From Candidatus Methanoperedens sp. (lineage in GTDB: Archaea; Halobacteriota; Methanosarcinia; Methanosarcinales; Methanoperedenaceae): a DNA stretch of 40,769 nucleotides. Positions 648 to 40,636 of the stretch are shown here, piece after piece (the first letter of the stretch is position 1; each line of letters starts with the position of its first letter). A model generated the notes under the pieces. The model worked only from the letters and a program-made list of their open reading frames with translations. It was not told the origin of the DNA and made no database searches. Location: NCBI GenBank assembly GCA_027460585.1, contig JAPZAP010000061.1, forward strand, positions 1-40,769, written 5' to 3'. The translations under genes and the position numbers were made by a program.

Positions 648-1046
648 ATGGCAAAAATAGAATCTAAAGCACATCCACATGAAGAATTAATGAAAGGGGT
701 TTACGGGCAACTGAAACAAATATTCGATGAATCAAAACAAGCTATCTATGTATATCTCGATGACCACCACATGATATATAATCAAAGATTTGCTTCTTTA
801 TTAGGATACAAATCAGTTGAAGAATTGTCAACAGTAAAAGAACCATTTATTGAAGCTTTTGTAATGGATAAAAGCCAGGAAATTCTTGTACATGCTTACA
901 GGCATGCAATGGAAGATAAGATTGGTTCCTGTATTGAGATTTCATTAAAAAAGAAAACAGGGGAGTCAATAAATGTCAAAGTAATCCTGGTTCCGATAAG
1001 TTATATGGGAGAACTGCTTGCCCTCCACTTTATATCAAAAATCTGA
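648..1046 (+). CDS. stand-alone PAS domain protein
   Basis: The 132-aa protein consists of about 20 residues of leader and then a single PAS domain, recognised from the run FDESKQAIYVYLDDHHMIYN, the helical RFASLLGYKSVEEL segment, and the terminal beta strands around GESINVKVILVPI. There is no kinase, cyclase or other output domain, so it would act through a partner. The start ATG is preceded by AGGAG at 632-636. It lies 168 bp upstream of a receiver-only protein on the same strand, which suggests a split signalling pair. The ligand cannot be told from sequence. Short PAS-only proteins are common in methanogens and ANME archaea. Confidence 0.7.
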   Translation: MAKIESKAHPHEELMKGVYGQLKQIFDESKQAIYVYLDDHHMIYNQRFASLLGYKSVEELSTVKEPFIEAFVMDKSQEILVHAYRHAMEDKIGSCIEISLKKKTGESINVKVILVPISYMGELLALHFISKI

Positions 1047-1214
1047 TTGACAGTAAATGGAAGGAATCGTGGCATTTTACATAAATTACTTATTATAAGG
1101 ATTAATAAAATGACTAGTAAGTGTTTTAGTCAATAGATTATAATATATTGCATAGCAGAGTAACTATGTTTATAATTTCCTATACGTTAAAAAAACAAAA
1201 GGAATAAAGATATT

Positions 1215-1640
1215 ATGAAGCCTAAAGTCCTTATTGTGGATGATGACCCGGTTAATATTGAAGTTTTAGAGGGTTATCTATCGAAAGATTATGATATTTT
1301 GAAAGCTCACGATGGATATGAGGCAATAACCATTGTGGAGGCAAATCCTCCTGATATCATATTGCTTGACATATTGATGCCAGGGATGAATGGATATGAA
1401 GTTTGTAAGAAACTTAAAGATGATCGTAAAACCGATCATATTCCTATCATTATGGTTACATCTCTGCGTGAAATAGAGGATAGGAATAAAGCAATCGAAG
1501 CAGGAGCGGATGATTTTATAACTAAACCATTTGATGTAGTTGAATTGTCTGTGAGAGTGAAATCGTATCTCAGGACAAAACTATATTATGATACTATGTT
1601 GGGCAACGCTAGTTTTCAACTTCATTTGCTGGTCTTATAA
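1215..1640 (+). CDS. response regulator receiver protein, C-terminus possibly truncated
   Basis: This 141-aa protein is a CheY/PleD-type receiver. The acidic pocket is D9-D11, the phosphoacceptor is D52 in LLDILMPGMNG, the switch Thr is T82 and the conserved Lys is K104 in TKPF. All catalytic residues are present, so phosphotransfer is expected to work. Residues 1-120 match the domain well; the last 20 residues after YLRTKLYYD turn into an unrelated hydrophobic tail. In related archaeal proteins the same linker often leads into another domain, so this may be the front half of a longer regulator cut by a frameshift. No histidine kinase lies nearby; the PAS protein upstream is the only signalling neighbour. 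Confidence 0.8.
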   Translation: MKPKVLIVDDDPVNIEVLEGYLSKDYDILKAHDGYEAITIVEANPPDIILLDILMPGMNGYEVCKKLKDDRKTDHIPIIMVTSLREIEDRNKAIEAGADDFITKPFDVVELSVRVKSYLRTKLYYDTMLGNASFQLHLLVL

Positions 1641-29850: not shown

Positions 29851-30484
29851 AATAGCATAATTGATACTCCAAATAAATTAAAGAATGTCAAGAATTTTTT
29901 ATAACAAAAAATAAGCATTATAAACGCTTTAAACTACATTTAAACCAAAATAAAAAATCTATTGATGAATCAAATTTTTTAAATGAAGAGAAATCCTCAA
30001 ACACCTAAAACATAGATAACCAATGAACGCCGAAAATCATAATACCACGGCAAAATTTACGATGTACCAAGAGAGTTCAGTTTAAACAGGAAAACATTAT
30101 CGCAAGCTACCATTAACCCTTAACTATAGAACTACAACATCTAATTACGCCTATTATGAACGGCGCTGAGACCACCACATTCCAAACCAGGCCTCAGAAC
30201 CATCCCCGAAAAAAACCTGACCCCAAAGCCCACCAGCTTAACCAATCCCACCCAGAACATGAATCGACCCTTAAAAGCCGAACCAGATTCAAACATATAC
30301 CGTCCTATCAACGCGCACAGCGAAACTATTCATAAACTCGTATAAATAAAGGGCGTAGCGTTGCGCCCACGATGCATAAGAGGCAAGCCCCCTATCCCAG
30401 TATGGTACCCCACCCCCAAATAGAAAGAGTCTCTGAGAAGAGAGTCTAAGGAGAGAGAATAAACACAAAACAACATAAATATTA

Positions 30485-30760
30485 TTTTAAGAATCAGATA
30501 CACAAACACCTATCTAATATATAGTAAAAAAATTTCACTATATATTATATCCAACAGTATAACATCCTAAATAGAAAAACCTTAAATCCGTAACGGAAAG
30601 TATCAACAGTCTAAATTTAATATCTGCTTATTGAATTTTAGACATAAACACTAATCAGCGACATATCAAAATCAAATGTAAATTTAATATTATATATATT
30701 TGCATAGAACAATTATCGGGAACACGCACAAATAAACATTTTTAGAATCAGATACACAGA
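30485..30760. repeat. direct repeat AGAATCAGATACACA, two copies
   Basis: The word lies at 30490-30504 and 30744-30758, preceded by T-rich sequence in both. A weaker copy, TTTAGAATCATATACT, occurs at 40665-40680 near the right end of the gene block. They may mark element ends or binding sites for a replication or integration protein. Confidence 0.35.
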
Positions 30761-30813
30761 AAGCGTGTACAAGTTTTTACCTACTACTATAGCGGCTTAC
30801 GCCAGAGAAGAAA

Positions 30814-30879
30814 CCGGGCGTGCCGCCATGGGTTGCGGCTGAGCCGCAATCCCGCTGCGGCGGGACGGCACACGCCCGG
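30814..30879. other. three-arm GC-rich hairpin (cloverleaf-like)
   Basis: CCGGGCGTG (30814-30822) pairs with CACGCCCGG (30871-30879), extended by CCG/CGG after a two-base bulge. Inside are two complete hairpins: TTGCGGC/GCCGCAA (30833-30839 with 30843-30849, loop TGA) and CCCGC/GCGGG (30851-30855 with 30860-30864). All arms are perfect. In such AT-rich DNA this is not expected by chance and suggests a replication or packaging signal or a structured RNA. Confidence 0.7.
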
Positions 30880-30942
30880 ATATAAGAAGAGACGAAGCAG
30901 ATGCTACTAAGCGGCCTGTATTGTCATTACGACCAAAGGTAA

Positions 30943-31079
30943 ATATCCGTGCTGCCCGCCCTGCCATAACGTCATTGAAGCCTGGGAAAATCTAGTTTGC
31001 GCCGAACTGCAGCGCAAACATGATATTCCCAGTCTTCTTATCTTAATTTATGGCAGGGCGGTGATAGCACCACGGATAT
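30943..31079. other. 137-nt nested stem structure
   Basis: Four perfect stems nest: ATATCCGTG (30943-30951) with CACGGATAT (31071-31079), a 14-bp stem from 30956-30969 to 31048-31061, CTGGGAA (30982-30988) with TTCCCAG (31026-31032), and GTTTGCGC (30995-31002) with GCGCAAAC (31012-31019). GTGCT (30949-30953) can alternatively pair with AGCAC (31066-31070). There are 38 paired positions in all. No protein frame crosses it with a start. It is either a single-strand DNA fold or a stable RNA. Confidence 0.75.
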
Positions 31080-31123
31080 ACTCTTTTAAAGTCTCATTCC
31101 TTCACTGTCTTATCTTTAACCTG

Positions 31124-31290
31124 GCAGGGTCGGCTCCTGCTTCCCTGGATACCTCTATCTACACGTTGCGAGGTCCCGGAGCCTTTCAGGCTTAACTCCA
31201 AGTTTTAAAAAGGTAGGAAATCGCAGAGTTCCAGGCACGTAATTTTATCCACGGCGCGTGAACCCTACCCCGCGCCCTTCCTAAAATTAC
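31124..31290. other. series of hairpins next to the rep gene
   Basis: The stems are GCAGG/CCTGC (31124-31128, 31136-31140), ACCTC/GAGGT (31151-31155, 31170-31174), AGCCT/AGGCT (31180-31184, 31188-31192), and a nested pair made of GTAATTTTA (31239-31247) with TAAAATTAC (31282-31290) around GGCGCG (31253-31258) with CGCGCC (31271-31276). They continue the structured region up to the 3' end of the rep gene. Filamentous phage intergenic regions are built in a similar way. Confidence 0.6.
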
Positions 31291-31341
31291 TCTTCGGCCT
31301 CATCCGCGCTTTTTTCCTCGTCAGGATACCTTATATCTGAG

Positions 31342-32490
31342 TTACAAAAATCGCGGAACGTATTTGTTTTCTTCTTTTGGTTTGATGTAACCTTCGAACA
31401 TCTTTAAAAATGCTGGATTTGTAACGTACTGGCCCCTGGCCGTCTTGATAATCAGCTTTCGTCTTAACAGCTTATTGGTTAAGATCCTATTTTCTAATTT
31501 ACCTTGCCATGAAAATCCGGATTTTAAAATCATATCAATACAACTGGGATCTAACTTCAACATTTCAGATACGTTAATTATCATTGAATCGAATTCTCGT
31601 TTTGTGGATCTGAATATGATACCCACAGTTTCCGCGTATTCGTCCAAAGTAAATTTAATATCTTCTTCCGGATACGATGAATTAAAATCTATTTGCCCAT
31701 CATACATAGTAATTTCGAACCTGACTAAATCAATTGATTTCTGGTATAATTTTCCTTGTTGAATCTTCTGATAAGGTTCTTTCCAATTCCATGCATCCAA
31801 ATTTGTATATAAGACCGTGTCATCGACAAAATATTCAGTATCGATATCTGGTTTTTCTCCAAAATACATAGTTTTTGAAGCCTGGTTAAAACTCTTAAAA
31901 GCCACTCCTTTCATGAAAAGGTCATTCCGGATATCATCAACAGATAATGGCTTCATTTCCCTGGCAACTTCGAGAGTAACACACTTACAAACAGGCCTTT
32001 CGTCATTTTCCCGAAACTTTGCGTATTCATGCGGCCACAAAAGATTATATTTTTCTTCGAAAATTGCCGTTATTTCTTGTGGTAACTTATTCAAATAAAC
32101 ATCAAGGAAATCATGAAGAGTCACTTTTGATCCTATAGGTAAAAAATTATCGTCATGGATCACCGGTGTTATGATATCATGCTCCATTTCAAATTTTTGA
32201 AAAAAATACCTATTAAAATTAAAATATACATTCATGGACCGAGATTGCCTTAATCTCAATTCCCATGAAAAATATTTTTTTGGGCTGCCATGCTCAAAAT
32301 ACAAAACCCTTTCTTTACCCTTCCCTTTGAATTTTGAGATCTTGGTTTCGAACTCAAGATTCAATCGATCAATAAGATCCGGATCAAAAAAATTGTTATC
32401 TGAATTTTTCACAGCTGAAGGAAAATACACAACCCAGGCGGAACGATCCAGAACCACCCGGTCAAGTGTAAAATCTCCTTCTTCAGCCAT
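31342..32490 (-). CDS. probable rolling-circle replication initiator (gpII/G2P-like)
   Basis: The 382-aa protein shows the order of motifs I associate with phage gpII/X-type initiators: a strand-rich N-terminus with VYFNFNRYF (residues 88-96), VTLEVAREM (171-179), KTMYFGEKP (206-214), a Tyr-rich stretch, and LVRFEITMYDG (255-265). The C-terminal third is helical and may bind DNA. I do not find a textbook HUH motif, so the catalytic residues are not identified. It is the last gene of a long minus-strand operon and borders the hairpin region, as an initiator next to its origin would. Confidence 0.5.
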   Translation of the reverse strand: MAEEGDFTLDRVVLDRSAWVVYFPSAVKNSDNNFFDPDLIDRLNLEFETKISKFKGKGKERVLYFEHGSPKKYFSWELRLRQSRSMNVYFNFNRYFFQKFEMEHDIITPVIHDDNFLPIGSKVTLHDFLDVYLNKLPQEITAIFEEKYNLLWPHEYAKFRENDERPVCKCVTLEVAREMKPLSVDDIRNDLFMKGVAFKSFNQASKTMYFGEKPDIDTEYFVDDTVLYTNLDAWNWKEPYQKIQQGKLYQKSIDLVRFEITMYDGQIDFNSSYPEEDIKFTLDEYAETVGIIFRSTKREFDSMIINVSEMLKLDPSCIDMILKSGFSWQGKLENRILTNKLLRRKLIIKTARGQYVTNPAFLKMFEGYIKPKEENKYVPRFL

Positions 32491-32496
32491 GTAATT

Positions 32497-32961
32497 TTAT
32501 TCGACCCGGGGAGCTCGTCTTCTAATACCCGTATTTTTGACAATCTCAGCATCGAGAATACTATTGAAATAGTCGCAATTTTCAGGAAGGTCAAGCCATT
32601 CCAAGAATCTGGCCATAACCAGAACAGGTATATCCATGGAATAACTTTTATCCATTTCATTGAATTTGGCCGGGCCTTTAATAACTACACCATTTAAGGC
32701 GCCATATTCAACTTTTTGTTTACTTTTAACATCTAAAAAGCTCCTTTCACCCTCACGCCTGAGTGTGATTTTTGTTTTTACATCGTTGAATGAATATTTC
32801 CGATCCAGATCTTCAAGAGGTAAAACCCTTCCTGGAATCAACGGTGGATTATTTGATCCACCAGTTCCACTACTGATTTTATTCTTTTCAACAGCAAGAA
32901 GGTTCTCTGCATTATGCTTTGCCCGTTCTTCTTCATCACTTAATTTTTTAAAATTCACCAT
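32497..32961 (-). CDS. unknown element protein upstream of rep
   Basis: The 154-aa soluble protein starts MVNFKKLSDEEERAKHNAEN, has a Gly/Ser/Pro-rich linker (ISSGTGGSNNPPLIPGR) and then a strand-rich domain of about 100 residues (KTKITLRREGERSFLDVKSK, GALNGVVIKGPAKF) with a basic tail. It ends 6 bases before rep. In filamentous phages a single-strand DNA-binding protein is encoded next to the initiator, and a small beta domain would fit, but there is no sequence match to claim it. Confidence 0.5.
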   Translation of the reverse strand: MVNFKKLSDEEERAKHNAENLLAVEKNKISSGTGGSNNPPLIPGRVLPLEDLDRKYSFNDVKTKITLRREGERSFLDVKSKQKVEYGALNGVVIKGPAKFNEMDKSYSMDIPVLVMARFLEWLDLPENCDYFNSILDAEIVKNTGIRRRAPRVE

Positions 32962-32978
32962 ATTTTTTCTCCTTTATT

Positions 32979-33185
32979 TTATTTCGGGAAGAACCGCACG
33001 CCTATGTAAAAGGTAAGCAGCCCCAAAATATTTTTAATATCATTTGCACCTATGCCAACGCCTAATAATAGTAAAACTCCTATTAGAGCGAAGGCACCAT
33101 TAACTACCATATCAATGTCTTTTTTTTCTTTACCTGTCAGTTTAAAATTCGATATTGTTCTATCTTCATCTTTTTCCGTATTCAT
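32979..33185 (-). CDS. small two-helix membrane protein (coat-protein candidate)
   Basis: Start ATG 33185 has GAGGTG six bases upstream. The 68-aa product has a charged N-terminus of about 25 residues (NTEKDEDRTISNFKLTGKEK), a hydrophobic helix VNGAFALIGVLLLLGVGIGA, and a second short hydrophobic segment to the end. Major coat proteins of filamentous viruses are this small and have one hydrophobic helix, but their order is usually different, so this is one possibility among several small membrane proteins. Confidence 0.5.
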   Translation of the reverse strand: MNTEKDEDRTISNFKLTGKEKKDIDMVVNGAFALIGVLLLLGVGIGANDIKNILGLLTFYIGVRFFPK

Positions 33186-33192
33186 ATACACC

Positions 33193-33360
33193 TCAATTCA
33201 TAACCTCGGCAAAAGCCGTCAAAGGCTTATGACTATCATCCGGGCGTTCGTCTTTCCGAAGGCCCAGCTCCCAAACAAGCATTTCGCGCTTGCTTGAAAG
33301 TTTCAAAATTTCTCGATCTATTTTTGAGATCTCTCGTTCAATGCCTGGAACAGGATCCAA
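33193..33360 (-). CDS. 55-aa coiled-coil protein, TTG start
   Basis: The frame from TTG 33360 to TGA 33193-33195 begins 3 bases behind the ParB-like stop and in the same frame. It encodes a helical heptad-like peptide (GIEREISKIDREILKLSSKR) and a Pro/Asp-rich end. Tight spacing on both sides supports translation by coupling. Function is unknown; it could be a dimerising or capping small protein. It might also be reached by stop-codon read-through of the ParB gene. Confidence 0.45.
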   Translation of the reverse strand: MDPVPGIEREISKIDREILKLSSKREMLVWELGLRKDERPDDSHKPLTAFAEVMN

Positions 33361-33363
33361 GGA

Positions 33364-34821
33364 TCACACCCCCAATCCTTTGAGCAGCTGCTCCATAGAT
33401 TTGGCATCAGGTTCACTATATTCAAACTCAGCACTTACAACAAGTCGCAATACTGCTTTTGGAAGATCTTCGTCCGGAATCTTAGTGAAATCATACACTT
33501 CTTCCGTTTCATCATCATCGATCTGAATTTCGGGCCAAGGGGAAAAAGCAGTTTCCGCATCCCCGTACCCATGATCAACTAATGATTTCAATATAGGTCT
33601 GGAATCCATATTGCTAATTCCTTTCAACCTATCATCACATAATTGCCAGGCTTTTTCAGATTCCGTATCTCTGATGCTGTCTTGCTCCTTCTGGAAGGCT
33701 TTTTCTTTCTTCTGGAAACATTTGACATCAAGACAGACTAACATTTTGTCCTGGTTTTTCTTGCATTTATCACATGAAGAGCAGGCCGTTTGATCCCAAG
33801 TTGCATTTTTTTGATCCGGAGAGGTATTACGAAGTTTTTCATATGTCCCATAGGCCATTTTCGAAGTATCAATTTGATCTTCTATCAAAAGATTTTCTAC
33901 TTTCTTTTCCTCAGCAAGCTTGAAATTCTCGCGAGCTGCATCAAGTTTTGCAGTCCAGCAATCTTTATTCAGACAGTGTTTGTTATTATCATTTGTATAA
34001 TTTAGGATAACAGCTATATCTTTGCAATCTTTGCAATTTTCAAAATCAAAAAAACCTTTCAATGGTCTAATATCATAAGAGAAACTGTCTAAATTCAGAC
34101 TAAGATTGTTTGAATAATTATTGAAAACATTAATGAGAAGCTTATCTAAGTCTTTCACCGATAAAGGACGAGATTCAATAAAATTCTTTACTTGTTTTTC
34201 AATGACATTGTAAATAGGATATTTTGCAAAAGGTAAAAGAATATTTGCATGGCTAGGAGTTATTTCTTGCGAAATAATAAGATCCTTCAATTCCTGGGGA
34301 GCATCCAGCAGCCTCAACCGGTTAGCAACATAAGCCTGGCTTTTTCCCATCTTCATCCCGAGCTCTGTTTGATTCAGGGCGCCATCGTCCAGGATCAGTT
34401 TGATACCCTGGGCTTCTTCCAGAGGTGAAAAGTCCTTCCGGTGAAAGTTATCTATAAAAAGCAAAAGCTTTGCTTCCGGATCACTTAGATCCCTGATAAT
34501 TGAAGGAACAGGATTGATCTCAAGCTCAATAGCAGCCCTGAGCCTTCTATGCCCTCCAACGACCTGATATCTTCCCAGGACTGCTGCAGGCCTGAGGAGT
34601 AAAGGCTCGTGGGGATAAAACCCATTCTCCTGCATACTTAATTTGATTTCTTCAAATTCCTGATCGTGATATGATTCTTCTGTGCGGGGATTCCATCCTG
34701 TAAGATCAATCAATGAAGTATCGATCATCAGGATTGTAGGTTTTTTCTGAATCTCTGAAACTTTTTCCTTTTTCAATCCTTTTCTTAATTCGTTGTTTGA
34801 TTCTTTCTTTTTACTTGCCAT
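33364..34821 (-). CDS. ParB-like partition/regulatory protein with Cys-rich C-terminal half
   Basis: From ATG 34821 (overlapping the previous gene by 11 bases) the protein has 485 residues. Residues 30-125 form a ParB N-terminal nuclease/CTPase-like domain with VVGGHRRLRAA at 87-97 and IDNFHRKDFSPLEEA at 123-137. A helix-turn-helix spans about 150-171 (QTELGMKMGKSQAYVANRLR). The second half has two Cys groups, C263/C266/C283/C288 and C347/C350/C353/C363/C368, each fit for zinc. No parA is present. It may segregate the element or silence its promoters. Confidence 0.8.
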   Translation of the reverse strand: MASKKKESNNELRKGLKKEKVSEIQKKPTILMIDTSLIDLTGWNPRTEESYHDQEFEEIKLSMQENGFYPHEPLLLRPAAVLGRYQVVGGHRRLRAAIELEINPVPSIIRDLSDPEAKLLLFIDNFHRKDFSPLEEAQGIKLILDDGALNQTELGMKMGKSQAYVANRLRLLDAPQELKDLIISQEITPSHANILLPFAKYPIYNVIEKQVKNFIESRPLSVKDLDKLLINVFNNYSNNLSLNLDSFSYDIRPLKGFFDFENCKDCKDIAVILNYTNDNNKHCLNKDCWTAKLDAARENFKLAEEKKVENLLIEDQIDTSKMAYGTYEKLRNTSPDQKNATWDQTACSSCDKCKKNQDKMLVCLDVKCFQKKEKAFQKEQDSIRDTESEKAWQLCDDRLKGISNMDSRPILKSLVDHGYGDAETAFSPWPEIQIDDDETEEVYDFTKIPDEDLPKAVLRLVVSAEFEYSEPDAKSMEQLLKGLGV

Positions 34822-35134
34822 GTAAAGCCACCACGATAGGAACGATTTCATATGCAGGTCCTTCTATTTCACCCTGGAATTTCACCGAATTTACTGTAAA
34901 ATTATTAGAACTATTGCCTATCGGTAACATCTCTTTCGGTAAATCAAAATTTCCAGAAACCTCAAAATCGCCATTGAATTTAACAGGACTTGTTGCACAA
35001 ACAAAAATCCCACCTATCAATATAGCAAAGAATACACCTATTGCTATTGATTCAACGATACGTTCTTTTTCTGATTTTTCACGGTCAATACCTCTAATTA
35101 TTGATTTTTTTACTGAACTCAAAATTTCTTTCAT
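34811..35134 (-). CDS. single-pass membrane protein of the element
   Basis: The 107-aa protein has a basic/acidic cytoplasmic start (KKSIIRGIDREKSEKER), one membrane helix at about residues 27-48 (IAIGVFFAILIGGIFVCA), and a strand-rich exported domain of 55 residues with NSSNNFTVNS, a possible glycosylation site. A type II membrane protein of this size could be a virion or entry-exclusion protein. Both gene ends overlap neighbours (ATGA upstream, 11 bases downstream), so it belongs to the operon. Confidence 0.55.
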   Translation of the reverse strand: MKEILSSVKKSIIRGIDREKSEKERIVESIAIGVFFAILIGGIFVCATSPVKFNGDFEVSGNFDLPKEMLPIGNSSNNFTVNSVKFQGEIEGPAYEIVPIVVALHGK

Positions 35135-35715
35135 GCTAAAACCTTCCTTTTTCCAATTTCACGAACTTCAGAAATAGTAAGTAAATCAGATGGCGGAGAT
35201 AACTCAACCATCTTTCCTGTCATGGATTTAATAAGATATCCATCTGCAATCATGGACATAATGCGTTTGAAAACAGTCTCCTGAGAATATCCATTACGAT
35301 GATTTATTCTAGAAAATACAAACAGAAGCAATGATTTCATATTATGTTCAACGTAAACCCTGTAAACAAGATCATAGATTGCCCTGGTCAGATCATCAAA
35401 ATCTGCTGCAGGTCGTGAAACGATTTCTTTTTTTTCATCGAGCGGGATCTTCGTTCCAATCCGCATGAAAAACCGCTTATGCCAGTTGCCAGCCCTCTTT
35501 TCAATATATACAATTTCAGGCTTTGAGTTATCGTATTGAAAGTTCTCGCATACATACAATTTCTGGTTTGAGATCTTACCATAAACCTGACAATCCACAT
35601 CAATTACCTGGAATTGAGGCTGGATCAAAACTCTATCACTTGTCATTGCGATACCAGAGAATGAAACGCATTGAGTGCAATTCTGTTCCATCCAATCAAG
35701 GAAATGAGGTTGCAT
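35131..35715 (-). CDS. unknown element protein with a winged-helix-like C-terminus
   Basis: The 194-aa protein has Cys near the start (MEQNCTQCVSFSG), a strand-rich first part (VIDVDCQVYGKISNQKLYVC, KPEIVYIEKRAG) and a helical last third with RNGYSQETVFKRIMSMIADG and YLIKSMTGKMVEL that could fold as a winged helix. CxxC at residues 13-16 may bind metal. The gene overlaps its neighbour downstream by ATGA and starts directly after the stop of the 62-aa gene. I do not recognise it. Confidence 0.55.
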   Translation of the reverse strand: MQPHFLDWMEQNCTQCVSFSGIAMTSDRVLIQPQFQVIDVDCQVYGKISNQKLYVCENFQYDNSKPEIVYIEKRAGNWHKRFFMRIGTKIPLDEKKEIVSRPAADFDDLTRAIYDLVYRVYVEHNMKSLLLFVFSRINHRNGYSQETVFKRIMSMIADGYLIKSMTGKMVELSPPSDLLTISEVREIGKRKVLA

Positions 35716-35904
35716 CTAAGAACACGCTCCAAATATTTCCGGATCCAAATAACATTGTTTCGCAAAAGCCAGCCCGCGATATTCGTCTATCCTGAAATTG
35801 ATATCAACAGGAATAGAAAGAAGCCTTGCTTGAAGCTTCACAAAATCTTCACAGGTTTCGCGCTTTCCTTTCCAGCAATTAAGGCAATGATGAATAGAAG
35901 CCAT
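35716..35904 (-). CDS. 62-aa Cys-containing protein
   Basis: The product begins MASIHHCLNCWKGKRETCED with CxxC at 7-10 and further Cys at 18, 51 and 61. It could be a zinc finger. Its stop is directly followed by the ATG of the next gene, and its start follows a 16-codon frame by zero bases. Similar small Cys proteins lie upstream. Confidence 0.5.
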   Translation of the reverse strand: MASIHHCLNCWKGKRETCEDFVKLQARLLSIPVDINFRIDEYRGLAFAKQCYLDPEIFGACS

Positions 35905-35955
35905 TTAGTTGTAAACCCCCTGTTCAGGACTATAACAAAGAGCAATTTCGGTCAT
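35905..35955 (-). CDS. possible 16-aa leader peptide
   Basis: ATG 35955 is preceded by GTGATTGAA, the same ribosome-site context as the next gene upstream, and the frame ends at TAA directly before the ATG of the 62-aa gene. It may be a coupling peptide. At this length it could also be chance. Confidence 0.25.
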   Translation of the reverse strand: MTEIALCYSPEQGVYN

Positions 35956-35956
35956 T

Positions 35957-36181
35957 TCAATCACTCATATCCACATCTTCATATCCCAAACTCTTAAGAG
36001 CATTCAAACACACTTCAATGACCTTTTTTTTATCAAGATTGGTCATTTCACGGTTTAAATTTATAATAAAATTAAATTCATTTTCTGTATGATTATTTTC
36101 ATACTCTTCTAAGAAAGTTTCTTCTTTTTTAGTCAATTTTTTGCCTGTTCTAACTTTTTCCTGTATTTTAAGTATGTCCAT
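35957..36181 (-). CDS. 74-aa helical protein
   Basis: The start at 36181 is supported by GGTGATTGAA directly upstream, a good match to the archaeal anti-Shine-Dalgarno end. The protein is charged and helical (MDILKIQEKVRTGKKLTKKE, then KKKVIEVCLNALKSLGYEDV), with a hairpin-like pair of helices. It may bind DNA or a partner. No family is recognised. Confidence 0.55.
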   Translation of the reverse strand: MDILKIQEKVRTGKKLTKKEETFLEEYENNHTENEFNFIINLNREMTNLDKKKVIEVCLNALKSLGYEDVDMSD

Positions 36182-36182
36182 T

Positions 36183-36533
36183 TCAATCACCCACAACATA
36201 CCAAGGCCGTTCATATTGAGGAGATGAGCCGGGCATTTCACCCGGCAGGTAGTCTATGACATTCTCACGCCTGACTTGCTTCTCGTTATCCCGGCTTTTG
36301 GCATCTGCCGGTCGATGATCAGAGAGGCCGTATATTCCTTGAATCCCATGACAAAGAGGAGCCTGCAAATCCCCTGCAGGCTGGGGGTCAATCCCCGGAA
36401 TAGTAGCGGTGGCTTTGAATATAGGGGATAGGGAATGACAGGAAACACCGGCGACATCAGGAGTTCGCGCCGGTAATAAATCATTGACAGGCCAGCAGGG
36501 TTCCTGACATGAAAAAAATTCTTCAAAGCACAT
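36183..36533 (-). CDS. 116-aa Cys/Pro-rich protein, frame uncertain
   Basis: From ATG 36533, preceded by GGGGGC, the frame encodes Cys-rich MCFEEFFSCQEPCWPVND, a long low-complexity middle, and an end SPQYERPWYVVGD whose TGA is one base from the next ATG. That coupling, the Cys content like its neighbours and the ribosome site favour this frame. A second frame, 36254-36526, is also open over most of the region. The stretch is richer in GC than the rest of the operon. Confidence 0.4.
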   Translation of the reverse strand: MCFEEFFSCQEPCWPVNDLLPARTPDVAGVSCHSLSPIFKATATIPGIDPQPAGDLQAPLCHGIQGIYGLSDHRPADAKSRDNEKQVRRENVIDYLPGEMPGSSPQYERPWYVVGD

Positions 36534-36639
36534 TTGGAAGCCCCCAGAATTTCCTTGCAAAAGCTACTCTTTCTTTCAGAGGCTTTTTTGAGATCTGATC
36601 AGAGGTTACAAATTTCATATTCTTTGAAGAGCTTGCCAT
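36523..36639 (-). CDS. 38-aa basic peptide
   Basis: ATG 36639 overlaps the TAA of the upstream gene (TAATG). The product is MASSSKNMKFVTSDQISKKP and a further KERVAFARKFWGL segment, with net positive charge and one helix. Small size limits what can be said. Confidence 0.4.
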   Translation of the reverse strand: MASSSKNMKFVTSDQISKKPLKERVAFARKFWGLPNVL

Positions 36640-36785
36640 TAATCATGCCCTCCATGAATCTTACACGGCACAGCCATACTACCGCGAATTTCAACATCTT
36701 CAGCGCGACAAACATCAAAATCCATCGCATTAAAGCCAATTACGACTTTACAACCACACTCTAAAACCACAGTTCGCGTAGTCAT
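36639..36785 (-). CDS. 48-aa Cys-containing protein
   Basis: ATG 36785 overlaps the TAA of the upstream gene (TAATG). The product has VLECGCKVVIGFN with C10 and C12, then C26 and C41 near HGG. Four Cys and a His fit a zinc site. It is one of several coupled small Cys proteins. Confidence 0.5.
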   Translation of the reverse strand: MTTRTVVLECGCKVVIGFNAMDFDVCRAEDVEIRGSMAVPCKIHGGHD

Positions 36786-36928
36786 TACTTTCCACCCCTC
36801 AAAGCTCCCCTTAACTGAAATTCCTCATAAGGAATAATCCTGAAATCAGACTTACAACCGTCACATTCGGGATAGCTGCCACAATCATCACCCATCACGT
36901 TAAACCCATTATTTGCAATGCAGTCCAT
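36785..36928 (-). CDS. 47-aa Cys-containing protein
   Basis: ATG 36928 follows GGGGTGTG. The product has C3, C16, C22 and C25 (DDCGSYPECDGCKSDF), a CxxC-type cluster, and an acidic to basic end. A small zinc finger is likely from the Cys spacing. Its TAA overlaps the next ATG. Confidence 0.5.
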   Translation of the reverse strand: MDCIANNGFNVMGDDCGSYPECDGCKSDFRIIPYEEFQLRGALRGGK

Positions 36929-36930
36929 AT

Positions 36931-37101
36931 TCACACCCCAGGAATAGGCCGCACTTTTATGAATCGGCCTTCGGCATCTTCAGCAGATTCTAAAATAACC
37001 TTTGATATTCCAGAAAAAAGATCATCCCTGACAAAAGCAGGGATCGGTATAGAAAGCTGGTTATTCTTCCGGGAACGCTTGATAGAATATTCAGCAGGCA
37101 T
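36931..37101 (-). CDS. 56-aa AbrB-like protein
   Basis: ATG 37101 follows the stop of the first operon gene directly. The product reads MPAEYSIKRSRKNNQLSIPI and ends GRFIKVRPIPGV. The RKNNQLSIPIPA turn resembles the swapped-hairpin DNA-binding fold of AbrB/MazE proteins, although the second half is short. It could be an operon autoregulator. Confidence 0.45.
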   Translation of the reverse strand: MPAEYSIKRSRKNNQLSIPIPAFVRDDLFSGISKVILESAEDAEGRFIKVRPIPGV

Positions 37102-37389
37102 TTAAGCCTCGATACGAGGATCAGATTCCGACCCATTTTTCAAAAATTCTGAAAGTGGAACCTGAGAAGGAACAGTAGATTGCAGCTTAAGTTTCTCCGA
37201 AAGGCAATCAAGAGCAACGTGTATAGCATGGCTATAATTACACCGATTGACACCCTGCTTCAAGAACCCGTCACGTTTCAGATTAACATTATTGAAATTC
37301 TCACACAATTCATCCAAACGTTTTTGATCGCCTTTGATTAAACGGGCACGCCCGCCGTATTCTTTTAAACTGCAATCGACTTGTACCAT
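37102..37389 (-). CDS. first gene of the element's minus-strand operon, unknown
   Basis: The 95-aa protein begins MVQVDCSLKEYGGRARLIKG and has a helical middle (QKRLDELCENFNNVN) and CNYSHAIHVALDCLSEKL, with three Cys. AGGAG stands 8 bases before the ATG. It might be a small regulator, being the promoter-proximal product, but no DNA-binding motif is clear. Confidence 0.55.
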   Translation of the reverse strand: MVQVDCSLKEYGGRARLIKGDQKRLDELCENFNNVNLKRDGFLKQGVNRCNYSHAIHVALDCLSEKLKLQSTVPSQVPLSEFLKNGSESDPRIEA

Positions 37390-37397
37390 TTGCTGAT

Positions 37398-37455
37398 GCT
37401 CCTATGTTTATCGTCTTTCGCTAAAAAGACATACTTAAGATTATTTTAAAAGTAC
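37398..37455 (-). promoter_or_regulatory. promoter and ribosome site of the element operon
   Basis: On the minus strand a TATA-like CTTTTAAAATA (near 37443-37455) is followed about 50 bases later by AGGAG (37399-37403) and the ATG at 37389. The divergent nuclease gene has its own TATA-like CTTAATACC at 37620-37628. Between them lies a 6-bp inverted repeat, TTAGCG (37517-37522) with CGCTAA (37539-37544), which could be an operator. Confidence 0.45.
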
Positions 37456-37675
37456 TTATAGTTTTGCCATTGTCCAAAAACTTTGTACAAAGCTTAAATA
37501 CAAACAAAATCAAATATTAGCGGGCGCGTTAAAACCTGCGCTAACAGGGCTCAGAGGAAAATCAACTTTTTTCAAAAAGTCTGATGCTCACCTCTGTTCA
37601 CGCGCCTACCCACAAAAAGACTTAATACCATAATGATGATAATAAGCACTTTGTTAACGCAAGGTGAAAGTATTA

Positions 37676-38248
37676 ATGAGTTTATTCCTACTTGAGATAT
37701 TTTGGACTTCAATAATTTTAGGATTAGTATTTTTTTCTTTATATTTTCATTCTTCAAAAGATAAAAAAGAAGATACAATCGAATCAAATTCAAAAATGAA
37801 ATACTACGAAAACCGTCTAAATTCTATAATCTTAGAACATAACATTAAAAAAGGGAATCAATTCGAAGATCACGTTCGATCCCTATTTGATAGTTATTTT
37901 ACAATTCAACCGAGAACACAGAAATACCCGGATTATATAATAACATTTAACCCAAATAGAGATCACTTTGCAGTTGAATGTAAATGGAAAAAACAATTAT
38001 ATAACAATTCATATAATATAAATGAAAGGGAATTTAGAAATTATAAAAACTATCATTTTGATAATAATATCCCTTTTTTTATGGTGTTAGGCCTGGGAGG
38101 AACAGCCGCTAACCCCGAACAAATATTCATAGTACCACTTAATAGACTAAAATATCCAGATATCAAGAAATATTATTTAGATCAATTTGAAAAACGAAAC
38201 AAAAACAAGCCATTTTCTTACAATTCTCTTAGAAAAAAACTTTATTAA
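37676..38248 (+). CDS. membrane-anchored PD-(D/E)XK nuclease
   Basis: ATG 37676 is preceded by AAGGTGA, which makes the GTG at 37664 part of the ribosome site; the product has 190 residues. A membrane helix spans about residues 3-24, then a charged linker (KDKKEDTIESNSK). The nuclease core has KKGNQFEDHVRSLF, the active-site Asp in YPDYIITF and the E-x-K in FAVECKWKK. This is the Mrr/NERD-like restriction-endonuclease fold. It is the only plus-strand gene of the element, on lower-GC DNA, and looks like a cargo gene for defence or superinfection control. Confidence 0.75.
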   Translation: MSLFLLEIFWTSIILGLVFFSLYFHSSKDKKEDTIESNSKMKYYENRLNSIILEHNIKKGNQFEDHVRSLFDSYFTIQPRTQKYPDYIITFNPNRDHFAVECKWKKQLYNNSYNINEREFRNYKNYHFDNNIPFFMVLGLGGTAANPEQIFIVPLNRLKYPDIKKYYLDQFEKRNKNKPFSYNSLRKKLY

Positions 38249-38902
38249 TCACCTTGTCTTTTTCTTTTTTTGTCCGAAATACATAAGCTGATGGGTATTA
38301 TAACATTTGAATGCAGGCGTAAGATCTACATAGAAATCAGCAATCCGGGTATATTCAGCGTGATCATTGACCGTCTGGCGCCCCACCATTACACTGCAAA
38401 AAGGAGGAGAAACATAGTCACCATTGATATCAACATCCCCAACAAGGAATTTATACACCGTAATATCCCTGTATCCGTTGTAGATCCTCGAAAAGTTCTG
38501 ATCCATTGCAACGCCGGTTATCCCTATCTTTCCAGCCTGTTTCCACAATTGAGTGGTCCAGGTGTATTTCTTCCAGTCCTGGGCATCAGCCAGGCTTGAG
38601 AATTCATCAAGGATCAGGAATCTTTCAATATTCCAGGTTTCATTATCACGGATATCCTGGAATATTTCATCCAGCTGGTGAAGGCATACATTGGGATCAT
38701 CCGGATCCAGCCGGCCATCAGGGGCCCGGATATCATTTCTATTGATGTCTGTTACCTTCACATTCGAATAAATCAGGGCGCCCCTTTCATGAGCTTCCAA
38801 AGCCATGAGGACAACCAGGGCAGTTTTACCTTTCCTGGGAAGGCCGCAAACTGCATGAAGATTTAAAGGAACATACAGATTTGGAGGATCTAAACTATTC
38901 AT
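38249..38902 (-). CDS. Zot-like P-loop ATPase
   Basis: The 217-aa protein has Walker A GLPRKGKT (20-27), the family strand GALIYSNVKV (41-50), Walker B RFLILDEFSS (94-103) and the later VAMDQNFSRIYNGYRDITVY, the segment after the sensor region in Zot/pI-type ATPases. These drive export or assembly of filamentous phages. Typical Zot proteins have a C-terminal membrane helix, which is missing here; the 273-aa membrane protein of the same operon might supply it. A packaging ATPase of another virus type cannot be excluded. The stop meets the convergent nuclease stop without a gap. Confidence 0.72.
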   Translation of the reverse strand: MNSLDPPNLYVPLNLHAVCGLPRKGKTALVVLMALEAHERGALIYSNVKVTDINRNDIRAPDGRLDPDDPNVCLHQLDEIFQDIRDNETWNIERFLILDEFSSLADAQDWKKYTWTTQLWKQAGKIGITGVAMDQNFSRIYNGYRDITVYKFLVGDVDINGDYVSPPFCSVMVGRQTVNDHAEYTRIADFYVDLTPAFKCYNTHQLMYFGQKKKKTR

Positions 38903-39234
38903 ATCGTATTCGTTTCAAAGTTCATAGTCCTCTTGCGGTCCTCAACTGCCACGCGGGTAGTGGCCACTTCCTTATAAATCTGATTTGCTATCCCCGGTAG
39001 ACTTAATCTACTTGGCATAACTGATCTTGAATGCTGCCTCAGCTCATCCATAAAATTAATAACGATATCCTGATCTGGATCGCACAAACATCTTTGGAGA
39101 GCTTCGCCCCTGGCAAGAACTGCAACCTGGAAGGAAGTAAGGTTTGCCTTACTCCTTTTATCATGATCTGTATAGACTGTATTAGGATCCACGATCTTTG
39201 CCTGGCTCTGACCAGCCATAGGAAAACCTGCCAT
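38899..39234 (-). CDS. unknown protein coupled to the Zot-like ATPase
   Basis: ATG 39234 follows GGAGGTGG by 6 bases and gives 111 residues; the gene overlaps the ATPase gene by 4 bases. The protein is hydrophilic, with NLTSFQVAVLARGEALQRCL, CDPDQDIVINFMDELRQH and a basic end. No membrane helix is present. It is likely a cytoplasmic partner of the ATPase. I do not recognise the family. Confidence 0.55.
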   Translation of the reverse strand: MAGFPMAGQSQAKIVDPNTVYTDHDKRSKANLTSFQVAVLARGEALQRCLCDPDQDIVINFMDELRQHSRSVMPSRLSLPGIANQIYKEVATTRVAVEDRKRTMNFETNTI

Positions 39235-39235
39235 C

Positions 39236-40057
39236 TTATCCACCTCCGGAGTTCTTAGAAATTTGCTTAAGAATTTCAATCATCCCAACTTTCAGATCTG
39301 CAATACTTGACGCAATCCCCGAAGGCAGCCATCCAGCCATCATCAGAACAAGAATAAGCCCGAGTCCTGCAGCTGCAATAGCTGCATAATACATTACCTG
39401 CAAATTAGGAATCGAAGTCATAGCCAGAAGCTCAATATTTCGATTATTCATTTTTGAGTAAAACTCCCTGGCATCAAATGAGAACTTTCCGATCTTCAAT
39501 TTTAATTCTTCATCCAAATCTGCGGCTTTCAATTTTTCCCTGTATGCATCCTTGATCAGATTCATAATATCGGCCCAATTCCAAAGATCCAACGGCTCAG
39601 AAATTCCCTCGATAACAATGAGGATAAAGTTTCTCCTAACAGGAACAAGGCAATGTTTCCTGACATTGTAGGTACAATTATCCCAGTTTATAGTCGACAT
39701 CTGGATAGGCTTCAAAATATAAGTCCTATGATCAGCATTTCCTTCCGTTTTCAACCGCAATACTGTAAGCTTGTTATAATAGAAAAACCGCATAAACCCA
39801 TCACGCAAGCGCTCCCAGGCATAGACATACCAGGCACCCTGGGGTAAGGGAAAACCGGATTCCTCAAAAGGAGTATCCGGTATTAAATTCGGATCTGATT
39901 TTATTTCGCACGAAATAGATTTCTTAAAATCATCTTTTGCCTTTTCCTTCTTTTTGTTTTTTCTTTGAATATATCTCAAAATTTCAAAAAGCAGATACAA
40001 AACCGCTATAACAATAGCAGCTAACATCACATCACTTGTCCCGTATATCATACTCAT
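39236..40057 (-). CDS. two-helix membrane protein of the assembly module
   Basis: The 273-aa protein has an N-terminal helix (about 10-28, MLAAIVIAVLYLLFEIL), a basic linker (RKNKKKEKAKDDFKK), a soluble domain of about 160 residues with RRNFILIVIEGISEPLDLWN, and a C-terminal helix around AAIAAAGLGLILVLMMAGWL followed by a 30-residue tail. Both helices place the main domain in the cytoplasm. It could be the membrane platform on which the ATPase works. The gene ends one base before the next ATG. Confidence 0.6.
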   Translation of the reverse strand: MSMIYGTSDVMLAAIVIAVLYLLFEILRYIQRKNKKKEKAKDDFKKSISCEIKSDPNLIPDTPFEESGFPLPQGAWYVYAWERLRDGFMRFFYYNKLTVLRLKTEGNADHRTYILKPIQMSTINWDNCTYNVRKHCLVPVRRNFILIVIEGISEPLDLWNWADIMNLIKDAYREKLKAADLDEELKLKIGKFSFDAREFYSKMNNRNIELLAMTSIPNLQVMYYAAIAAAGLGLILVLMMAGWLPSGIASSIADLKVGMIEILKQISKNSGGG

Positions 40058-40075
40058 ATTTTCATTCCTATTTTT

Positions 40076-40636
40076 CTAATTTTTGTCAAAAGTCATTAAA
40101 AACGAATATCCGCAAGCGGAGATTAATAAAATAACCATTCCAGACAGAAGAAAAGCTGATGAATTTGTATGATCTATCTGGGTCAATCCGAACCACGCAG
40201 AATAAGCAGCACCTGCAGCAGGTACAAAGAAGTTCTTCTTTACAAAAGCAAGGATAAAAATAAATCCTATCAACAACAAAGTTTCAGCTAACATTTTCTT
40301 ATCTACCTCATATGTATTTTGTATAACATTGAAATTCTCCAGAATAAAATCCTTATTAACATCAGTACCGCTTACGCTAACAACAGTTTCATTCTGAATG
40401 TACCCTGATAGTCCGGCCAGAAGCACAGCTGTAAAATTATTGTGCATCTGGGTAAAATTATAATTTCCGGTCGAATCCGTAAGCGTATATTTCGTATCAT
40501 GGCAACCATAGCAAGATACAATAGCACCAGCAATGGGAACGCCAGAGGCATTCAAAACCCTCCCTGTAATATTATAGGAAATAATTTGAGAAGCAACTAC
40601 ATCAACACTCCAATTCAGATAAGCAAAATTCGGCAA
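40076..40636 (-). CDS. membrane-anchored protein with a carboxypeptidase-regulatory-like domain
   Basis: The 186-aa frame begins at TTG 40636; the frame is closed by TAA shortly upstream and a TATA-like element lies about 25 bases before, so a leaderless message is possible. Residues 18-95 form a beta sandwich of the CarboxypepD_reg type (ITGRVLNASGVPIAGAIVSC, DSTGNYNFTQ) with several N-x-S/T sites. Three membrane helices follow (around 115-132, 138-150 and 160-180). A surface spike or adhesin is a reasonable inference. Confidence 0.65.
   Translation of the reverse strand: MPNFAYLNWSVDVVASQIISYNITGRVLNASGVPIAGAIVSCYGCHDTKYTLTDSTGNYNFTQMHNNFTAVLLAGLSGYIQNETVVSVSGTDVNKDFILENFNVIQNTYEVDKKMLAETLLLIGFIFILAFVKKNFFVPAAGAAYSAWFGLTQIDHTNSSAFLLSGMVILLISACGYSFLMTFDKN

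What the first reader, a model, noticed from the sequence alone, without database searches (positions are those of the whole stretch)
30811..31290. 480-bp hairpin-dense region beside the initiator gene
At least nine perfect stems, several nested, fill this GC-rich island in AT-rich DNA: a three-arm fold (30814-30879), a 137-nt nested stem with 38 base pairs (30943-31079) and a hairpin series (31124-31290). Filamentous phages carry packaging signal and plus/minus origins as hairpins in one intergenic region next to gene II. The same DNA could equally encode a new structured RNA.
Basis: partly seen in the sequence, partly recalled or inferred. Interest (0 to 1): 0.75.

Follow-up and report, generated by a model that had tools for sequence, protein, structure and literature searches.

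The report
New switch-like archaeal mobile-element RNA
The hairpin-rich stretch is a previously uncatalogued, conserved folded element, most likely a non-coding RNA, that recurs on mobile DNA of the methane-eating archaeon Methanoperedens; one of its strands has two rival pairing partners, and its tip hairpin also sits in front of several other Methanoperedens genes.

Summary
The folding is real (z -6.6 to -9.8 on both strands), but it comes from the three-arm fold (30814-30879) and the long nested hairpin (30935-31087); the 3' hairpin series folds no better than shuffles. Host: Ca. Methanoperedens. The element is not in Rfam, PLSDB or INPHARED. Homologues lie in 11 of 31 genomes of the genus plus one distant copy in another family. 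They sit in unrelated contexts, only two of 15 beside the window's initiator-like gene, so this is not simply that replicon's origin or packaging region. The stems show compensatory changes. Two features are new. (1) One 5' strand is complementary both to the adjacent 3' strand (31048-31087) and to a second conserved copy (31121-31159); own copies fit better than other members' copies (2 of 40,320 permutations): a candidate two-state switch. (2) The apical hairpin (30977-31037; conserved A.A mismatch) also occurs alone about 20 times, in leaders of at least seven other gene families, on the gene's own strand. Best reading: a stand-alone + strand RNA sharing a regulatory hairpin with those genes. 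Transcription, strand and function are not shown; G.U pairs show no strand bias, so a single-stranded-DNA role stays open.

The parts
30814..30879 (+). 5' three-arm fold
   Evidence: z -4.0. Related three-arm sequence with changed outer stem at the same place in L027 (79% identity over query 33-99; sequence). Not conserved in the other members.
30906..30934 (+). conserved 5' segment before the stem; family homology to L027 and L028 starts about here
   Evidence: blastn boundary, alignment A1; model R1 match 30926-31094
30935..30969 (+). 5' strand of P1, complementary to both seg1 and seg2
30977..31037 (+). apical hairpin P2: conserved A.A mismatch (30994/31020) and 9-nt loop CGAACTGCA (31003-31011); also found alone in gene leaders
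   Evidence: covariation, 43 double-change cells, 0 of 500 shuffles; A.A in 11 of 13 rows; stand-alone copies
31048..31087 (+). seg1, 3' strand of P1, with the one-sided conserved bulge beginning GATA (31063-31066)
   Evidence: GAT invariant in alignment A2 of 10 members; stem covaries
31121..31159 (+). seg2, diverged second copy of seg1, also complementary to the 5' strand
   Evidence: conserved in A1; own pairing better than cross pairing, 2 of 40,320 permutations; shuffles
   Evidence: z -1.5; homology stops near 31169
31308..31317 (+). T-run GCTTTTTTCC, possible + strand terminator between convergent genes
   Evidence: sequence; no consistent T-run bias over the family
31342..32490 (-). 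convergent neighbour gene, 382 aa, possible rolling-circle-type initiator; not a constant partner of the element
   Evidence: no Pfam; fold match to 4cij E 1e-5 with low TM-score; homologues without the element

Best explanation
A conserved structured element about 270-480 nt long, most likely transcribed from the + strand as a stand-alone non-coding RNA and carried mostly on mobile DNA of Methanoperedens. SHOWN by sequence: (a) a long stem P1 with a conserved one-sided GAU bulge; (b) an apical hairpin P2 with a conserved A.A mismatch; (c) a second copy (seg2) of the P1 3' strand that keeps complementarity to the same 5' strand, so two mutually exclusive helices are available; (d) P2 also occurs alone in the leaders of at least seven other gene families, on the gene's strand wherever a downstream gene could be read. 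INFERRED: that it is transcribed; that the RNA toggles between 5' strand:seg1 (P2 closed on its stem) and 5' strand:seg2; that P2 is read by the same factor that reads the leader hairpins. The RNA would then compete for, or sense, that factor and so adjust expression of element-borne genes.
For: Folding z to -10.2. Homologues in 11 of 31 genomes of the genus and one in another family. Compensatory changes in P1, e.g. CCGTG/CACGG, CCGTCG/CGACGG in L077, GTCTGAGAC/GTCTCAGAC in L120 and in P2. Double complementarity of the 5' strand; in L119 versus L077 a change in the 5' strand is matched by seg2 while seg1 stays the same. Stand-alone P2 hairpins lie 50-160 nt upstream of start codons on the same strand, before genes such as an Ssb-like OB-fold protein and a DUF1848 protein. 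No Rfam family.
Against: No transcription data. G.U pairs favour neither strand (54 of 967 against 64 of 981 pairs; 12 G.T against 10 A.C cells in P2), which is unusual for an RNA family, and most members fold slightly better as the - strand. Seg2 is weak in L036 and L121a, absent in L121b, and not seen by eye in the distant L122. Own-versus-cross pairing could partly reflect shared ancestry or gene conversion between seg1 and seg2. No conserved promoter was shown.
Confidence: 0.55

Rival explanations
1. A single-stranded-DNA recombination or transposition site (attC-like, MITE-like or transposon end): a folded hairpin with extrahelical bases and a variable tip that a recombinase recognises as DNA.
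For: Symmetric, low G.U content; one-sided conserved bulge and variable tip; independent cassette in many mobile contexts; two copies flank HicAB in L121; a 5' box TTGAAGYTGYTCAC recurs downstream of several copies; integron-integrase-like genes above the cut-off in two genomes, one of them (G027) a carrier.
Against: I see no attC R boxes (RYYYAAC/GTTRRRY) at the stem base. Most genomes hold a single copy, not an array. Integron integrases are absent above the cut-off in ten of the eleven carrier genomes. Conserved P2 in gene leaders is not explained.
Confidence: 0.2
2. Replication origin or packaging-signal region of the window's initiator-bearing element, as in the intergenic region of filamentous phages.
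For: Next to a gene with a rolling-circle-initiator-like predicted fold, same arrangement in L027; strong fold as single-stranded DNA.
Against: 13 of 15 family loci lack the initiator gene, as far as flanks allow; initiator homologues in G016, G017 and G133 lack the element.
Confidence: 0.1
3. Structured 3' UTR or terminator region of the convergent - strand gene, acting in the - strand transcript.
For: In the window, L027 and ArdC-type copies a - strand gene ends just downstream; most members fold slightly better as the - strand.
Against: The downstream - strand genes are unrelated (382-aa protein; 50-aa small protein). P2 alone is on the coding strand of its genes, which is the opposite strand to this reading.
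Confidence: 0.08
4. Guide or template RNA of a known enzyme (retron msr-msd, IS110 bridge RNA, group II intron piece).
For: A reverse transcriptase lies beside L077, an IS110 transposase beside L122, nested group II introns inside L077.
Against: Each enzyme is near one member only; Rfam finds group II intron parts in the insert but not in the element.
Confidence: 0.04

Closest known systems
Orphan large RNAs of mobile elements and phages (GOLLD, ROOL, OLE; from general knowledge)
   Same: Large, conserved fold on mobile DNA without a constant protein partner
   Different: No sequence or model match; archaeal; duplicated 3' strand competing for one 5' strand; hairpin shared with gene leaders
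Protein-binding mRNA leader hairpins and sponge RNAs such as CsrB/RsmY (general knowledge)
   Same: One small hairpin repeated in gene leaders and in a separate RNA
   Different: No binding protein known; one P2 per RNA instead of many; archaeal; hairpin unrelated by any Rfam match
Transcription or translation switches with mutually exclusive helices (riboswitch expression platforms, pT181-type attenuators; general knowledge)
   Same: One strand with two competing partners
   Different: No downstream gene on the + strand in the window; no known ligand or antisense RNA
Integron attC sites (PMC9668308 for archaeal integrons)
   Same: Folded stem with extrahelical bases and variable tip; a TA cassette between two copies in L121
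   Different: No R boxes seen, no arrays, integrase absent above cut-off in most carriers
Intergenic region of filamentous phages (general knowledge)
   Same: Several hairpins beside an initiator-like gene in the window and L027
   Different: Element occurs without the initiator and initiators occur without the element

Membership tests
Any Rfam 15 family | covariance-model score at or above the gathering threshold | tested here: not met
   0 matches in the window; only weak microRNA-type chance matches at permissive threshold; none in nine homologous or P2-bearing loci
Structured non-coding RNA | compensatory base changes in the proposed stems | tested here: met
   P2 counted with shuffles and slides; P1 by own-versus-cross pairing, 25 of 40,320 permutations, and by direct comparison
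Structured non-coding RNA | strand preference from G.U pairs | tested here: inconclusive
   54 of 967 against 64 of 981 pairs; 12 G.T against 10 A.C cells
Structured non-coding RNA | transcription | not testable with these tools
   no RNA-seq available
Filamentous-phage intergenic (origin/packaging) region | constant linkage to the replication initiator gene | tested here: not met
   2 of 15 loci linked; initiator homologues lack the element
Filamentous-phage intergenic (origin/packaging) region | nicking by the initiator or packaging function | not testable with these tools
   needs biochemistry
Integron attC | R'' RYYYAAC and R' GTTRRRY boxes at the stem base | tested here: not met
   read by eye at the P1 base in the window and in alignment A1; no dedicated attC program was run
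Integron attC | integron integrase in the carrier genome | tested here: inconclusive
   above the TIGR02249 cut-off in G027 and G029 only; of these only G027 carries the element; several genomes are incomplete
Retron msr-msd | reverse transcriptase gene directly linked | tested here: not met
   an RT (RVT_1) near L077 only; none in the other flanks read
IS110 bridge RNA | lies inside an IS110 element beside its transposase | tested here: not met
   IS110 transposase near L122 only

The most novel reading that the evidence does not exclude
A mobile-element-encoded switch RNA that presents, in only one of its two folds, the same hairpin that controls a set of genes on Methanoperedens plasmid-like elements (an Ssb-like single-strand-binding protein, a zinc-ribbon gene and others), so that integrated elements tune or interfere with resident elements through RNA competition for a shared factor.
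Probability: 0.2. Interest if true: 0.85.

Novelty: new variant of a known kind. Interest (0 to 1): 0.6.

Why it matters
Few large structured RNAs are known in archaea (general knowledge), and I found no description of RNA-based regulation on mobile elements of Methanoperedens, the archaea that oxidise methane with nitrate or metals; the plasmid paper searched mentions no non-coding RNA or hairpin (PMC9674854). If the family is an RNA, it gives a direct handle on how these elements control their genes and perhaps each other, and a two-state switch whose rival helices can be read from sequence. If it acts as single-stranded DNA, it would be a new class of folded recombination or replication site in archaea. 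Either outcome is testable with existing enrichment cultures and metatranscriptomes.

Tried and rejected
Rfam at gathering and permissive thresholds: nothing credible. PLSDB and INPHARED by distant blastn: no match. A motif scan of IMG/VR gave one match without the rest of the element (L064): chance. The bacterial hits were taken as chance matches to a 20-base motif and not followed up. Retron: reverse transcriptase beside L077 only. IS110 bridge RNA: transposase beside L122 only. Group II intron: real introns are inserted in the L077 copy, but the element itself is not one. attC: no R boxes seen. Strand from G.U bias: no signal. T-runs after seg2: 10 loci with T-runs against 8 with A-runs, no signal. 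MAFFT misaligns L048/L077 in the P1 5' strand, so P1 covariation over distant members was read from duplex pairings and not counted on one alignment. Loci L029, L034 and L037 of the first DNA search share only the inner hairpin or a short stretch and were removed from the family.

Full report
OBSERVATION. Region 30780-31320 folds much better than dinucleotide shuffles on both strands and with both parameter sets (z -6.6 to -9.8) and is the top folding outlier of the 40-kb window after correction for GC. The signal sits in 30811-30882 (z -4.0) and 30930-31092 (z -10.2). The 3' series 31090-31300 is not significant by folding (z -0.5 and -1.5).

HOST AND DISTRIBUTION. Record titles of homologues name Candidatus Methanoperedens (including BLZ2) and Methanosarcinales isolate METP1. 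A DNA search of 60 relatives found matches in 11 genomes, all of the same genus; two of those genomes (G008, G013) share only the inner hairpin or a short stretch. A motif scan found one copy in each of 8 genomes and two in a ninth. Covariance model R1 added G005, G018:C18, two tandem copies in G027 and one distant member in another family of the order, G054. In all there are 15 loci: 14 in 11 of 31 genomes of the genus, and one in G054. Sequences used to build R1 match it by construction; those of G003:C36, G005, G018:C18, G027 and G054 were not in it. Weaker R1 hits in other genomes cover only the inner hairpin or are near chance.

CONTEXT. Only the window and L027 have the 382-aa gene and ParB neighbourhood. 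Five copies (L030-L033, L035) lie in a repeated mosaic mobile region; four of them have an ArdC-like gene (ArdC N-terminal domain in L033), and tRNA genes lie within a few kb in the three of these loci scanned or checked (L030, L031, L033). Others lie beside HicAB (L121), a reverse transcriptase (L077) or an IS110 transposase (L122). Homologues of the 382-aa protein in G016, G017 and the 5.8-Mb genome G133 lack the element. The element is therefore an independent cassette, not the origin region of this replicon alone. L028 and L120 lie on or near contig ends, so their neighbourhoods are incomplete.

ANATOMY. A stem P1 joins a 5' strand (window 30935-30969) to seg1 (31048-31087), with a one-sided bulge whose GAT is invariant in the ten members of alignment A2 (L120 has GAA). 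The bases on either side change in compensating ways: CCGTG/CACGG in the window, CCGTCG/CGACGG in L077, GTCTGAGAC/GTCTCAGAC in L120. The apical hairpin P2 (30977-31037) has an A.A mismatch in 11 of 13 aligned rows and strong covariation: 43 double-change cells, 0 of 500 shuffles, best at slide 0. The A5 alignment mixes family members with stand-alone hairpins, and its structure was drawn from these same sequences, so the percentage paired leans towards it; shuffles also do not keep relatedness.

SECOND 3' STRAND. Downstream, seg2 (31121-31159) repeats seg1 in diverged form (TGGCAGGGTCGGC...GGATACCTCT against TGGCAGGGCGGTGATA...GGATATACTCT). Its complementarity to the 5' strand is specific to each member: the summed own duplex energy of eight representatives, -220.3 kcal/mol, is reached by 2 of 40,320 permutations (seg1 control 25 of 40,320). 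Eight of ten members beat more than 97% of shuffles; L036 and L121a are weakest. The cleanest case is L119 against L077: the 5' strand has CCTGCCC in one and CCCGCCC in the other, seg2 has GGGCAGG and GGGCGGG accordingly, and seg1 is GGGCGGG in both. That argues for selection on 5' strand:seg2 pairing and not only for duplication or gene conversion. Representatives share ancestry, so the permutation count is not a strict probability. L121b lacks seg2. In L077 the unit is split between seg1 and seg2 by a 4.8-kb insertion with nested group II introns, flanked by the repeat TTCAAAA.

P2 ELSEWHERE. Covariance model R2 of P2 finds about 20 stand-alone copies in the genus, more than half of them not in its training set. 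They lie 50-160 nt upstream of start codons on the same strand, before at least seven gene families: an Ssb-like OB-fold protein (RPA-type; Pfam score 23.6 against a cut-off of 24), a small zinc-ribbon-like gene, a gene beginning MRFDVKCV, a DUF1848 gene, a 570-aa gene, a gene just after PCNA, and an AbrB-like gene. One copy (L151) is cut by the contig end. Several small genes fall under the ORF length limit and were read from the sequences. Neighbouring RPA, PCNA and ParA genes suggest plasmids, but the contigs were not proven extrachromosomal. The constant orientation supports the + strand as the sense strand of P2.

STRAND AND MOLECULE. G.U pairs do not favour either strand, and minimum energies favour the - strand slightly in most members. 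The RNA reading rests on the leader context of P2 and on structure, not on a direct test. Coding capacity was judged only by the absence of a shared open frame; frames crossing the element are not conserved between members.

MECHANISM. Shown: two mutually exclusive pairings are available and co-vary with the 5' strand; P2 is shared with gene leaders. Inferred: transcription, a switch that changes how P2 is presented, and a common P2-binding factor. Confidence is about 0.55 for a stand-alone switch-like RNA and about 0.2 for the cross-regulation model.

NEIGHBOUR. The 382-aa protein has no Pfam family. Its predicted structure (mean pLDDT 73, five sequences) matches the rolling-circle initiator 4cij (E 1e-5) and, about as well, TATA-binding proteins, and an inovirus G2P, all with low TM-scores. 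The label 'initiator' is plausible but not proven.

Noticed in passing
window 30000-30780: Non-coding stretch with strong base asymmetry (AT skew +0.275, GC skew -0.194 in 30001-31000) and a 21-nt direct repeat ATTTT(A/T)AGAATCAGATACACA at 30484-30504 and 30738-30758.
   Followed up: no
window 961-1600: Second-strongest folding outlier of the window after GC correction (480-nt window at 1121, -2.8 sd).
   Followed up: no
window 31342-40636, strand -: Row of - strand genes: initiator-like protein, ParB (Pfam), weakly Zot-like P-loop protein (phrog_197 E 0.0045), membrane-type proteins; looks like a mobile or virus-like element.
   Followed up: partly
L123-L127, L130, L132-L135, L137, L138, L142-L149, L151-L155, L157: A leader hairpin with a conserved A.A mismatch stands before at least seven gene families in Methanoperedens; a possible regulon in its own right.
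   Followed up: partly
L077 4931-9698: Nested group II introns (one inside the ORF of the other) within an insertion flanked by TTCAAAA that splits one family member.
   Followed up: partly
L077 10620-12287: 555-aa reverse-transcriptase gene (RVT_1) with a C-terminal extension; an inverted repeat AAATCAC/GTGATTT upstream looks retron-like by eye.
   Followed up: no
L121 8423-9539: HicA-HicB toxin-antitoxin pair lies between two tandem copies of the element, the first of which lacks seg2.
   Followed up: partly
G027:C5:3211-3909 and G029:C157:739-1404: Integron-integrase-like genes above the TIGR02249 cut-off in two Methanoperedens genomes; contamination not excluded.
   Followed up: no
L084 8415-9686, L085 7382-8593, L086 7920-9125: Homologues of the 382-aa protein in other genomes, one beside a likely tyrosine recombinase (L086) and one in a 5.8-Mb genome of another family (L084): an unannotated initiator-like family.
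   Followed up: partly
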